Assembly (NCBI GenBank): GCA_003132405.1
Contig: PKXQ01000118.1
Span: 1-64,000 of the forward strand
Reading direction: 5' to 3'
Length of the DNA stretch: 64,000 nucleotides
DNA from: Acidobacteriaceae bacterium
Lineage (GTDB): Bacteria; Acidobacteriota; Terriglobia; Terriglobales; Acidobacteriaceae
Translations under genes and position numbers: made by a program
The notes under the pieces: generated by a model
The model's database searches: none
What the model was told of the DNA's origin: nothing
The model's input: the letters and a program-made list of their open reading frames with translations, nothing else
Shown: positions 39,876 to 43,790 of the stretch, one piece after another
Layout of the letters: every line of letters starts with the position of its first letter
Numbering within the stretch: the stretch's first letter is position 1

Positions 39876-39877
39876 CT

Positions 39878-39901
39878 GAATTAGGCACTTGACAAACCCA
39901 T
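39878..39901. repeat. left terminal inverted repeat (core 24 nt)
   Basis: GAATTAGGCACTTGACAAACCCAT; 22 of 24 identical to the reverse complement of 43765-43788. Confidence 0.92.
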
Positions 39902-39917
39902 ACGTTTGAGCTAATGT
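39889..39917 (+). promoter_or_regulatory. promoter with -35 inside the left TIR
   Basis: TTGACA (39889-39894), 17-nt spacer, TAATGT (39912-39917); transposase ATG at 39924. Confidence 0.7.
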
Positions 39918-39923
39918 TGATGC

Positions 39924-40910
39924 ATGGCGAACGATGAACTCAACCTAATCGCACTGGCTCAACACTTTAGCGATGATGACAAGGCGCGGGAATTTGTCGA
40001 AAAGCTACGTTGGCCCGATGGCCCTGTATGTCCGCACTGTGGCGAGGTCAATAACGCCTACAAACTGGAGCCAAAGCCTGCTAAGGAAAACGGGAAGGGC
40101 AAGCACGTCCGCAAGGGTGTGTGGAAGTGTGCCGGATGCCGTGAGCAGTTCACCGTTACCGTGGGAACGATCTTCGAGGATTCCCACATCCCCCTGAGCA
40201 AATGGTTGCTTGCCTATCACCTGCTCTGCGCCAGCAAGAAGGGCATGAGCGCCCACCAGCTTCACAGAATGCTCAAGGTCACGTACAGGAGTGCATGGTT
40301 CATGGCTCACAGGATTCGTTACACGATGAGCCAAGAACCGTTGTCATCGAAACTCACAGGGATTATCGAGGTTGACGAAACTTACGTTGGCGGCAAGCTG
40401 CGCATTGGAACGACCAAGCCGCATGATAACTACCATCGCAAGCGTATCGGTCCAGTAGCGAATAAGGCCGCCGTCGTATCCGTTTTGCAGCGTGGCGGTC
40501 GCGTCCAATCTCGCCATGTCGAGCACGTCACTGCGGATAATCTGAGAACGATGGTTGACACGATGGTGGATGAAGATGCTCACGTGATGACGGACAGTTC
40601 CACCGTACTCAAGAAGGCATTTCTCGGAGAGCGCACGCACTCTCAGGTGAACCATAGAGCGAAAGAATACGTCCGATACGAGGACGGCCTGTGCATCACC
40701 ACGAACACGATTGAAGGCTATTTTGCTACTTTGAAACGCGGGATCAACGGTGTATACCATCATGTTGGGAAGCAGCACCTTCACCGCTACTTGAGCGAGT
40801 TTGATTTCCGGTATAACGCTCGCAAGGTTAGTGATGGCGACCGCACTTTGTTGGCGCTCAATGGCACCGGCGGAAAGCGGTTAATGCTGCGGGACTCAAA
40901 GCCGAACTAG
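39924..40910 (+). CDS. IS1595 family transposase (ISXO2-like), N-terminal zinc ribbon
   Basis: CPHC...WKCAGC zinc ribbon; IEVDETYVGGK, ISXO2-like DDE-type core; TTNTIEGYFATLKRGINGVYHHV. Confidence 0.93.
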   Translation: MANDELNLIALAQHFSDDDKAREFVEKLRWPDGPVCPHCGEVNNAYKLEPKPAKENGKGKHVRKGVWKCAGCREQFTVTVGTIFEDSHIPLSKWLLAYHLLCASKKGMSAHQLHRMLKVTYRSAWFMAHRIRYTMSQEPLSSKLTGIIEVDETYVGGKLRIGTTKPHDNYHRKRIGPVANKAAVVSVLQRGGRVQSRHVEHVTADNLRTMVDTMVDEDAHVMTDSSTVLKKAFLGERTHSQVNHRAKEYVRYEDGLCITTNTIEGYFATLKRGINGVYHHVGKQHLHRYLSEFDFRYNARKVSDGDRTLLALNGTGGKRLMLRDSKPN

Positions 40911-40949
40911 GAGAGAAGAAATCGAATTTCAACATCGCTAAAGCTGCAA

Positions 40950-40973
40950 AAGGTCAGCTGGCAGGCTGACCTT
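40950..40973. other. hairpin after transposase gene
   Basis: AAGGTCAGC-TGGCAG-GCTGACCTT perfect 9-bp stem; no obvious U-tract. Confidence 0.6.
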
Positions 40974-41076
40974 CGCGGCAGTTCTAAATTCGTCGGCGGC
41001 AACCGCAACGTTCTCCCGGAACGTCCCAGTATAAGTGTATCCACTGGCAGCACCAATATACCACGGAGGCGCTGCC

Positions 41077-41826
41077 ATGCCTGAAAAGCGCACAATCATA
41101 TTTAAGATTCCTGAGGTTAGGCCGGAAGAACTGCCCGCCCGTCTTCTCGCCGATTATGTCCGAGACCTCGCGGTTCTTTTCGGAGACGAATCCGTAGCAC
41201 TCGTTAACATATCCGAAAACAGTACGAATCTCGCGTTCTCTATGCCACTCGAAGCGGCCCTGACTGCGCGTGAAAAACTGCAGAGCGCCGCAAGTAATGA
41301 GGGCACGCCAGAGGAGAATCGCGCTTTTCAGAATGTGGATACGAGGCTAAGAGATTACGAGCAAACGGGAGTTATCCTTGACGACCAGAAAGCAAAAATC
41401 ATTGAGTTCCCCGGCAGACTCCGGGAGGTGCTCGCTAAGTTTCCGGCTGTAACACAAAATGCAGTTGTAGAGGGAACTCCGATCCGCGTTGGATCGGATA
41501 GCCCGAAGGAAAACGTTCCGGTTCACTTGCAGGATGGAAACATAATTCACTTCTGCACGGCCTCCCGTGACAAAGCCGCTCAAATCGCGGAGTTTGGAAT
41601 GTTTAAGGCCCTTGTGCGCGTCACCGGAGAGGCTAGATGGAATCGAGGATTCGACGGGGAATGGTATCGGACAAGATTTTATGTCCAGGATTGTGATGTT
41701 CTTGACGATAGCGAATCTTTGCTGGATACGGTTGCCAAGCTCCGCGCCGTCCCCGGAAACGGCTGGCGTGACATTCCTGACCCACTGGCGGCTCTGACAA
41801 GAATTAGACACGGAGACGCGGAGTAA
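41077..41826 (+). CDS. uncharacterised passenger protein (249 aa), likely partner of the PIN-domain protein
   Basis: ATG at 41077 with ggaggc upstream; 3-nt gap to the PIN gene. C-terminal pattern ...FYVQDCDVLDDSESLLDTVAKLRAVPGNGW recalls conserved hypotheticals next to PIN genes (from memory). Confidence 0.7.
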   Translation: MPEKRTIIFKIPEVRPEELPARLLADYVRDLAVLFGDESVALVNISENSTNLAFSMPLEAALTAREKLQSAASNEGTPEENRAFQNVDTRLRDYEQTGVILDDQKAKIIEFPGRLREVLAKFPAVTQNAVVEGTPIRVGSDSPKENVPVHLQDGNIIHFCTASRDKAAQIAEFGMFKALVRVTGEARWNRGFDGEWYRTRFYVQDCDVLDDSESLLDTVAKLRAVPGNGWRDIPDPLAALTRIRHGDAE

Positions 41827-41829
41827 ACA

Positions 41830-42315: not shown

Positions 42316-42367
42316 CTGCAACGCGGGATTCCTCCATTCGAGGAAGAGAGATTGTCTGGAGACGAGA

Positions 42368-42493
42368 ATGAAGAAAATAACGAACTCAAAACCAATCCCG
42401 CACATTCCGCTCCCGTTGAAGGAAGTGATGAGGGACGTGCTAAAGATCAAGCCACCAGCGAAAACATCAAGCCCAAAGAAAACTAAGGATTGA
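42368..42493 (+). CDS. small basic protein (41 aa)
   Basis: MKKITNSKPIPHIPLPLKEVMRDVLKIKPPAKTSSPKKTKD; IPLP-x-EV-x-LLKxKP-type motif resembles small ORFs seen in many genomes (from memory). Other frames are also open here. Confidence 0.5.
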   Translation: MKKITNSKPIPHIPLPLKEVMRDVLKIKPPAKTSSPKKTKD

Positions 42494-43385
42494 GCCATTC
42501 CTTATCAGGTCGCGTGATAAGACGCGCAGCAAAATAAGCTTGGTCCATGTCCAAGATGGTTTTGATTTTGTAGCACTCATTCGGATCATCACGCTCTACG
42601 AGGAAACATGCGACATCGCGACCGTTTGAGGAATGAAACGGAAGAAGCAATTGCATCCTCTGTTCCTCAACGTAATAGACTGGGATCGCAGTTTTGTAAT
42701 TGCGCCTGATCTTTGGAATTAGGTTCTCTATGGCCCCCCGCAGATAGTTCCGCACCGATTCATCGCTCGCATCTTGAGGGAAGCCCGATCTGTCTTTTGC
42801 CCGTTCGAACATGTGGTCGAAAACATCAGTGTCGATATGGTAGTTGATGTTAAAAACGTAATCGCGGCTGTCATCGGAATACCATGCCAATCGCGGCAAC
42901 CGCGTCCCAAAGTGATGCCGATAGGCGTCTTCGCGAGAGGTCACCGTACCTCGATAGACCCAATCCGCCGCTGGTTTTGCTTGCTGAGCACCCGTAAACG
43001 GTTGATACTTTTGAAAGACGCAGAATAGATCTGCCGAATGCTTATCCTGGAGTCCAGTGTTGAAGCTGAACCAATGGTTATCATCCGAAAGCACAAAGTA
43101 CTTTCCGGGGTCAGCCATTTCCAAATCCCGCAGCCGGATGAATGTATATCGCAGGTAGTTCCGCAATTTTGGGGGTTTATCGTTGTACTTGTTCTGGAAG
43201 CGCGGAAGCGTGAAGTCCCAAGACGGCGCTCCCTCAAACGTCTTTGCAGCTATCTTTTTGAACGGAGCAGAAAAATCAAGACTTTGAGTCAGAGGGTCTT
43301 TGTCGGGATGGAAGTGCGCAAACACCTCGCCGACGGGTTCATCTTTGTAAAGCTTGAAAAGGGTATGATACTTCGCCACGTCCAT
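42483..43385 (-). CDS. DUF3825-domain-like protein (~300 aa)
   Basis: LRNYLRYTFIRLRD, NTGLQD, AIPVYYVEEQRMQLLLPF, ILDMDQAYFAARLITRPDKEWL match my memory of DUF3825. ATG at 43385 preceded by ggggga; supplied ORF starts at TTG 43391. Confidence 0.72.
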   Translation of the reverse strand: MDVAKYHTLFKLYKDEPVGEVFAHFHPDKDPLTQSLDFSAPFKKIAAKTFEGAPSWDFTLPRFQNKYNDKPPKLRNYLRYTFIRLRDLEMADPGKYFVLSDDNHWFSFNTGLQDKHSADLFCVFQKYQPFTGAQQAKPAADWVYRGTVTSREDAYRHHFGTRLPRLAWYSDDSRDYVFNINYHIDTDVFDHMFERAKDRSGFPQDASDESVRNYLRGAIENLIPKIRRNYKTAIPVYYVEEQRMQLLLPFHSSNGRDVACFLVERDDPNECYKIKTILDMDQAYFAARLITRPDKEWLNP

Positions 43386-43407
43386 AAACAATCCCCCAAG
43401 AAACTAA

Positions 43408-43437
43408 GACCCCCGCTCTTCGCGGGGGTTCTCTTTT
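43408..43437 (+). terminator. strong hairpin upstream of DUF3825 gene, terminator-like on + strand
   Basis: ACCCCCGC-TCTTC-GCGGGGGT stem followed by TCTCTTTT on + strand; U-poorer TCTTAGTTTCTT on - strand. Confidence 0.65.
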
Positions 43438-43626
43438 GGAATCATCTCTTGTAGGTAGAAAAAATCTGGGGTGTTTTTTGTATGGATCATCCGTTCGCAA
43501 GGAACGGTTCTCTTTCCGCGAGCTTCTGCGGGCGTATCAAAAATAGCACCAACTGCAATCTGAGATCAAGCCCTAAAATCCTGTATTCGTTACTGTCCGA
43601 CCCACAACCAGTAGTACCCTAATTGT

Positions 43627-43740
43627 TGGTGCCGGGAGCGGGAATTGCACCCGCACGGGACGAATCCCAGCGGCTTCCTCACGGCTCTCAATGAGAGGCG
43701 TCAGGAAGGCCGCCGCGTCTGCTAGTTTCGCCATCCCGGC
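43627..43740 (-). tRNA. tRNA-Leu-like gene with anticodon arm replaced by a long hairpin (114 nt with CCA)
   Basis: GCCGGGA-T-GGCGAAACTAGCAGACGC-G-[44-nt hairpin]-T-GGGA-TTCG-TCCC-GT-GCGGG-TGCAATT-CCCGC-TCCCGGC-A-CCA. Acceptor, D, variable and T stems intact; no normal 7-nt anticodon loop. Confidence 0.8.
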
Positions 43741-43764
43741 ATATTTAAATCGTCTCACAATGTG

Positions 43765-43788
43765 ATGGGTTTGTCAAGGGCATAATTC
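43765..43788. repeat. right terminal inverted repeat (core 24 nt)
   Basis: ATGGGTTTGTCAAGGGCATAATTC; reverse complement matches the left TIR at 22 of 24 positions. Confidence 0.92.
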
Positions 43789-43790
43789 CT

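What the first reader, a model, noticed from the sequence alone, without database searches (positions are those of the whole stretch)
39876..43790. Complete IS1595-type transposon carrying PIN, DUF3825-like, two uncharacterised proteins and a tRNA-like gene
Seen directly: imperfect inverted repeats GAATTAGGCACTTGACAAACCCAT (39878-39901) and ATGGGTTTGTCAAGGGCATAATTC (43765-43788), flanked by the direct repeat TAAAAATAT on both sides. An ISXO2-like transposase lies at the left end, with four more ORFs and a tRNA-Leu-like gene between the ends. Established: IS1595-family elements have 8-bp target duplications and some carry passenger genes. Inference: the cargo is a mobile RNA-centred module (toxin-antitoxin, defence or element maintenance), because a putative RNase and a tRNA-like RNA are packaged together. 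I know of no description of this combination.
Basis: partly seen in the sequence, partly recalled or inferred. Interest (0 to 1): 0.92.

Follow-up and report, generated by a model that had tools for sequence, protein, structure and literature searches.

The report
Transposon carrying toxin pair and pseudo-tRNA
A soil Acidobacterium carries a complete small jumping gene that hauls a toxin-antitoxin-like gene pair, a protein of unknown function and a tRNA-shaped RNA that lacks a normal anticodon arm, and other transposons of the same family carry comparable RNAs, so the RNA is a recurring cargo rather than an accident.

Summary
Window 39876-43790 is a complete IS1595-family transposon with 26-nt inverted repeats (22/26 identical) and an 8-bp target duplication, AAAAATAT. 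It occurs once in this genome. The left arm has the transposase, ORF1 plus PIN, and a 41-aa basic ORF. The right arm, on the other strand, has a tRNA-like RNA and DUF3825.

ORF1 and PIN form a strict two-gene toxin-antitoxin-like unit: they are adjacent in all 10 intact homologous loci found outside the window. DUF3825 is an independent mobile-element gene. Fifteen related elements, nearly all with an exact 8-bp duplication, carry different cargo; 10 of all 16 have PIN-type nucleases.

The unexpected result is that the tRNA-like RNA recurs. Four of 16 elements hold one (0.01 expected by chance); three of those pass Rfam's tRNA threshold. They have lengthened or odd anticodon arms, and three of four have a U55-to-G change. 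A fifth copy, 87% identical, lies in a sister species beside a degenerate transposon end. This ties "irregular tRNAs", earlier only suspected to belong to transposons or toxin-antitoxin systems, to a defined transposon family. The RNA's function is inferred, not shown.

The parts
39868..39875 (.). left copy of 8-bp target duplication AAAAATAT
39876..43790 (+). complete IS1595-family transposon, 3915 bp
   Evidence: TIRs, target duplication, transposase
39876..39901 (+). left terminal inverted repeat (26 nt)
   Evidence: homologous ends in 15 other elements
39889..39917 (+). TIR-embedded promoter of the transposase: TTGACA, 17 nt, TAATGT
   Evidence: same spacing with TAnnnT in the 10 closest left ends; consensus match only
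39924..40910 (+). IS1595-family transposase, 328 aa
41077..41826 (+). ORF1, 249 aa, putative partner (antitoxin) of PIN; no Pfam match, PHROG 19868
   Evidence: adjacent to PIN in 10/10 other intact loci
41830..42315 (+). PIN-domain ribonuclease (putative toxin), 161 aa, acidic residues D5, E51, D114, D133 present
42368..42493 (+). conserved small basic ORF, 41 aa (KPIPHIPLPLKEVMRDVLKIKPP)
   Evidence: homologues at the same place in related elements
42483..43391 (-). DUF3825 protein, 302 aa
   Evidence: Pfam PF12873, 2e-44
43408..43430 (.). GC-rich hairpin, terminator-like
   Evidence: consensus match only
43627..43740 (-). tRNA-Leu-like RNA with CCA end, no anticodon arm, A18 and G55
43670..43714 (-). 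long hairpin of the tRNA-like RNA that replaces the anticodon arm
43749..43777 (-). possible right-TIR promoter: TTGACA, 17 nt, GACGAT (weak -10)
43765..43790 (-). right terminal inverted repeat (26 nt)
43791..43798 (.). right copy of 8-bp target duplication AAAAATAT

Best explanation
SHOWN: this is an intact 3.9-kb IS1595-family transposon with passenger genes (a 'transporter IS'). It belongs to a set of Acidobacteriota elements with a common plan. The left TIR carries a -35 box in front of the transposase, followed by an exchangeable toxin-antitoxin-like pair (here ORF1+PIN) and, in many, a small basic ORF. The right arm can hold cargo read inward from the right TIR (here tRNA-like RNA, then DUF3825). 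tRNA-like RNAs with an extended or odd anticodon arm and usually G55 recur in these elements. INFERRED: the IS1595 transposase moves the unit. ORF1 restrains the PIN ribonuclease, so cells that lose the element, or are attacked, suffer RNA cleavage; this pair favours element persistence or defence. The tRNA-like RNA is transcribed from a TIR-proximal promoter, trimmed like a tRNA and probably leucylated (bacterial LeuRS does not need the anticodon; own knowledge), but cannot decode. It therefore acts in trans as a tRNA mimic. The most likely single role is a decoy or sink for tRNA-acting nucleases or translation factors, as accessory to the toxin/defence cargo (about 30% by itself). DUF3825 is an independent accessory gene.
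For: Transposon: TIRs and target duplication, transposase families, empty-site-like sequence. Plan: 15 related elements, nearly all with an exact 8-bp duplication and different cargo; PIN or PIN_10 in 10 of 16. ORF1-PIN adjacency in 10/10 intact loci beyond the window, gap -4 to +3. tRNA-likes in 4 of 16 elements against 0.01 expected in Markov shuffles; three reach 41-52 bits with Rfam tRNA, gathering cut-off 29. L221 folds freely into a cloverleaf with extended anticodon arm. An 87% identical tRNA-like in G282 lies about 300 nt from a degenerate right TIR. Between these two copies 14 of 31 positions differ in the tip of the long arm but only 3 of 83 in the rest (Fisher p 3e-7; the arm boundaries were chosen after seeing the alignment), so the body was probably under selection. 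L037, whose right arm holds a tRNA-like, and L043 and L044, whose right arms hold minus-strand protein genes, have a good -10 box behind the right-TIR TTGACA (TATTCT, TATGAT, TATAAT).
Against: No expression data. The right-TIR promoter in the window itself is weak (-10 GACGAT, 3 of 6). L223 carries a tRNA-like but no PIN gene, and PIN elements often lack a tRNA-like, so a functional link between the two is unproven. L221 has a normal U55 T loop and L223 has an ordinary-length anticodon stem, so the RNAs are heterogeneous. G18/U55 to A18/G55 should weaken the tRNA elbow and perhaps charging. ORF1 as antitoxin rests on gene order only; it has no recognised antitoxin domain.
Confidence: 0.7

Rival explanations
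1. The tRNA-like RNA is a decaying host tRNA-Leu gene picked up by chance; its odd arm is pseudogene drift.
For: Acceptor stem matches the host tRNA-Leu(CAA). The G282 copy has lost one variable-arm pair and reads ACA for CCA. Only two of 24 genus genomes have it.
Against: The tRNA body is preserved while mainly the arm tip diverged. All stems are intact and the same G55 change is found in the dissimilar copies L037 and L223. tRNA-likes recur in 4 of 16 elements, and the flanks of the two Leu-like copies share no detectable similarity.
Confidence: 0.15
2. The tRNA-like RNA is a cis-acting element: a processing site or transcript insulator in the leader of right-arm genes (DUF3825 here), cut by RNase P/Z, that sets their expression or blocks read-through from outside the element.
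For: In the window and in L221 it heads a leftward gene or genes; in the window and L037 it starts about 50 nt inside the right end. A terminator-like hairpin lies between it and DUF3825.
Against: In L037 no leftward gene of note follows it, in L223 it lies in mid-element on the other strand. A normal tRNA arm would serve as well, so the odd arm is unexplained.
Confidence: 0.2
3. One reading: PIN, DUF3825 and the tRNA-like RNA are one mobile RNA-centred module (toxin-antitoxin, defence or maintenance).
For: They lie together in an intact element; DUF3825 is found near an abortive-infection gene and near an anti-CRISPR gene elsewhere.
Against: The three co-occur only once; each occurs without the others.
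Confidence: 0.1
4. The RNAs are unusual but working translation tRNAs, or mistranslating ones (L223 and L276 read as UGG on a Leu/Ser-type body), that change decoding in favour of the element.
For: L223 and L276 have a readable UGG anticodon loop. Some allo-tRNAs are active in E. coli (PMC7609411).
Against: Window, G282, L037 and L221 have no ordinary anticodon loop. Irregular tRNAs of this kind could not be charged by E. coli enzymes according to the same review.
Confidence: 0.1

Closest known systems
IS1595 family 'transporter IS' (Siguier, Gagnevin and Chandler 2009, cited as the source of transporter ISs in PMC3129680)
   Same: Zinc ribbon plus ISXO2-like DDE transposase, short TIRs, 8-bp target duplication, passenger genes between the ends.
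   Different: The passengers here include tRNA-like RNAs; I know of no report of an IS1595 element carrying one, and the library searches found none. I could not read the 2009 paper itself.
Irregular tRNAs and allo-tRNA-like RNAs of soil Acidobacteria (Mukai et al. 2017, as reviewed in PMC7609411)
   Same: Non-canonical tRNA genes in Acidobacteria; one overlapped a transposon-related ORF; [quoted passage not shown]
   Different: Those have 12-bp acceptor domains (8/4, 9/3), an extra loop or G-1; this one has a 7/5 acceptor domain and a long hairpin in place of the anticodon arm, and it sits inside a transposon with both ends defined.
VapBC-type toxin-antitoxin pairs
   Same: PIN nuclease directly downstream of and coupled to a partner gene, carried by mobile elements.
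   Different: The partner is about 250 aa with no known antitoxin domain; the NCBIfam VapC model is far below cut-off (17.6 of 80 bits).
Toxin-antitoxin pairs in Tn3-family transposons (PMC7157771, title and abstract only)
   Same: A toxin-antitoxin pair as a regular passenger of a transposon family.
   Different: Different transposase family; no tRNA-like RNA in what I read.

Membership tests
IS1595 family | ISXO2/IS1595-type DDE transposase with zinc ribbon | tested here: met
   Pfam PF12762 and PF12760; NCBIfam NF033547
IS1595 family | terminal inverted repeats | tested here: met
   26 nt, 22 identical; homologous ends in 15 related elements
IS1595 family | 8-bp target duplication | tested here: met
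   AAAAATAT on both sides
IS1595 family | active transposition | not testable with these tools
   single copy here; different sites in relatives
type II toxin-antitoxin system (VapBC-like) | PIN nuclease with conserved acidic residues | tested here: met
type II toxin-antitoxin system (VapBC-like) | adjacent, coupled partner gene | tested here: met
   10/10 other intact loci, gap -4 to +3
type II toxin-antitoxin system (VapBC-like) | partner is a recognised antitoxin family | tested here: not met
   no Pfam, NCBIfam or PADLOC hit for ORF1; only PHROG 19868 of unknown function
type II toxin-antitoxin system (VapBC-like) | toxicity relieved by partner | not testable with these tools
   needs an expression test
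canonical tRNA | acceptor, D and T stems, CCA end | tested here: met
canonical tRNA | 5-bp anticodon stem with 7-nt loop | tested here: not met
   long hairpin instead; not called by ARAGORN or by Rfam at gathering threshold
canonical tRNA | T loop TTCRA with G18-U55 elbow pair | tested here: not met
   A18 and G55
allo-tRNA | 12-bp acceptor domain (8/4 or 9/3) | tested here: not met
   the sequence pairs as a 7-bp acceptor stem and a 5-bp T stem

The most novel reading that the evidence does not exclude
A lineage of IS1595 transposons uses mobile tRNA mimics (tRNA body kept, decoding arm replaced, elbow pair altered) as trans-acting RNAs that protect or arm the element's nuclease-based toxin/defence cargo: a tRNA-mimic arm of a transposon addiction or defence strategy, paralleling the many tRNA-Leu-like RNAs with long, mostly anticodon-less middles seen in viral contigs.
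Probability: 0.27. Interest if true: 0.87.

Novelty: new variant of a known kind. Interest (0 to 1): 0.64.

Why it matters
Irregular tRNAs in soil Acidobacteria have been known since 2017 with only a suggestion that they belong to transposons or toxin-antitoxin systems. Here such RNAs are placed between defined transposon ends in at least four elements of one family, three of them beside PIN-nuclease pairs. That gives concrete constructs for testing what a tRNA without a normal decoding arm does for a mobile element, and it warns that tRNA finders miss such genes.

Tried and rejected
A T-arm pattern with G55 (GNGGGTGCRANNCCCNC) over 299 genomes gave hits that look mostly like cobalamin riboswitches and group II introns; one new tRNA-like (L276) came out of it. 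A pattern requiring a long middle in tRNA-Leu over 85,488 species genomes found only the G282 copy and one normal tRNA-Leu; the window's own record may be left out of that scan. A first viral-contig pattern found a normal tRNA-Leu, a second none. Single-sequence AlphaFold models of DUF3825 and ORF1 were poor (pLDDT 35 and 43) and were not used. Profile searches of ORF1, DUF3825 and PIN against the PDB found nothing. The search for related loci with DUF3825 and ORF1 alignments failed. DUF3825 neighbours in other Acidobacteriota show no constant partner. Two IS1595 loci from other families of the phylum showed no tRNA-like; one of them reaches the contig end. A fixed PIN-DUF3825-tRNA module was rejected (see rivals).
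Full report
1. The element. Window 39876-43790 is bounded by 26-nt inverted repeats (22 identical) and by the 8-bp direct repeat AAAAATAT on both sides. The transposase (39924-40910) is IS1595-family by Pfam and NCBIfam. The genome, an 88.8%-complete draft, has one copy. The target lies in a palindromic intergenic repeat. In a sister species of the genus (G282) a copy of that repeat runs through the target point with a single target sequence, an empty-site-like sequence, though the similarity to the right of the point is short.

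2. The family plan. Fifteen related elements were delimited in Acidobacteriota by their TIRs; nearly all show an exact 8-bp duplication (L220, L225 and L041 were closed by the repeat of their target). After the transposase comes variable cargo: DUF3800 (L034); unknown protein + PIN (L035, L036, L037, L039, L051, L221, L225); DUF433 + PIN_10 (L041, L044). Counting the window, 10 of 16 elements carry PIN-type nucleases; L051 and L225 fall below the Pfam cut-off and were assigned through homology to the window pair. A small basic ORF (..KPIPHIPLPFxEVMxDVLKVKPP..) follows in the closest relatives, with looser versions in others. The 10 closest left ends carry TTGACA (TTTACA in one), 17 nt, then TAnnnT: a TIR-embedded promoter for the transposase. 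At right ends, good -10 boxes stand behind TTGACA in L037 (tRNA-like) and in L043 and L044 (leftward protein genes).

3. ORF1 and PIN. ORF1 homologues (28-37% identical) from Acidobacteriota and from plasmids of Proteobacteria are directly followed by a PIN gene in 10 of 10 intact loci beyond the window, with gaps of -4 to +3 nt (in L216 a PIN match follows but no intact frame was found). The PIN acidic residues are invariant. Both have phage protein families, and this genome has a second pair outside the transposon (C62). This is the anatomy of a toxin-antitoxin pair with an unusual, 249-aa partner. Toxicity is inferred.

4. DUF3825. It is rare in the phylum (4 of 396 genomes) and occurs without the RNA: a chromosomal 68% homologue (L040), a 3.1-kb plasmid, a plasmid with an abortive-infection gene nearby, a Listeria phage close to anti-CRISPR AcrIIA1, and a streptococcal prophage. 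It is an independent mobile accessory gene of unknown function.

5. The tRNA-like RNA. Positions 43627-43740 (minus) resemble host tRNA-Leu(CAA) in acceptor stem, D arm and T arm and encode CCA, but a long hairpin replaces the anticodon arm, G18 is A and U55 is G. The fold beats all shuffles (z -5.2), although the free minimum-energy fold is not the cloverleaf; the cloverleaf is within about 1 kcal/mol of it. A strict cloverleaf scan of the 16 elements finds four such RNAs (window, L037, L221, L223) against a mean of 0.01 in Markov shuffles. Rfam's tRNA model independently scores L223, L037 and L221 at 52, 48 and 41 bits, cut-off 29; the window copy scores only 23 bits, with the tRNA-Sec model. 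In the window and L037 the RNA starts about 50 nt from the right end and points inward; in L221 it is in the right arm; in L223 in mid-element. L221 folds without constraint into a cloverleaf with a long arm in place of the anticodon loop. A scan of 24 genus genomes found one more copy, in G282, 87% identical, about 300 nt from a degenerate right TIR. Between the two, 14 of 31 arm-tip positions differ but only 3 of 83 others (p 3e-7; boundaries chosen after seeing the alignment), while flanking DNA shows no detectable similarity. That argues for selection on the tRNA body and against a fresh pseudogene.

6. How it probably works. Shown: the transposon anatomy, the exchangeable cargo and the recurrent tRNA-likes. 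Inferred: the ORF1-PIN pair keeps the element in the population or defends the cell. The RNA is made from a TIR-proximal promoter, processed and perhaps leucylated, cannot decode, and works in trans as a tRNA mimic, most likely a decoy or sink for tRNA-acting nucleases or translation factors. A cis-acting processing role and plain decay remain possible. The tRNA-like RNA is not statistically tied to PIN: 3 of 4 elements with the RNA have PIN, against 7 of 12 without it.

7. Relation to what is known. Transporter ISs with passenger genes are known (PMC3129680, PMC7986276). Irregular tRNAs of soil Acidobacteria were described by Mukai et al. 2017; [quoted passage not shown] I could read only the review. 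The window RNA is not an allo-tRNA (7/5 acceptor domain). What appears new is the assignment of such RNAs to a defined IS1595 lineage with both ends, beside PIN pairs.

8. Limits. Sixteen elements, one phylum, draft genomes, no expression data. The scan demands perfect stems and will miss decayed copies. The promoter in the window's right TIR is weak. The element set was chosen by transposase similarity, so it is not a random sample of IS1595.

Noticed in passing
Rfam scores several above the tRNA cut-off.
   Followed up: partly
L302 10994-11077 (G123): A tRNA-Pro(UGG)-like gene with Leu/Ser-type D arm and T loop UGCAACU, not in an IS1595 element, beside what looks by eye like a SIR2-like, methyltransferase and restriction cluster; the L223 transposon tRNA-like also reads UGG.
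   Followed up: partly
42368-42493 and related elements: Small conserved basic protein (KPIPHIPLPxxEVMxDVLKVKPP) near the right arm of many of these transposons; no Pfam, NCBIfam or PHROG match.
   Followed up: partly
39802-39871: Palindromic intergenic repeat just left of the insertion, 83% identical to a sequence in G282 (C45), probably an interspersed repeat.
   Followed up: partly
L221 element 3701-4006; L044 element 2323-2607: Cas2-like small proteins as right-arm cargo of two IS1595 elements; Pfam Cas2 1.5e-9 for L221, L044 by eye only.
   Followed up: partly
G000:C62:5256-5969 (L209, L231): Second ORF1-PIN pair in the same genome, outside any IS1595 element seen.
   Followed up: partly
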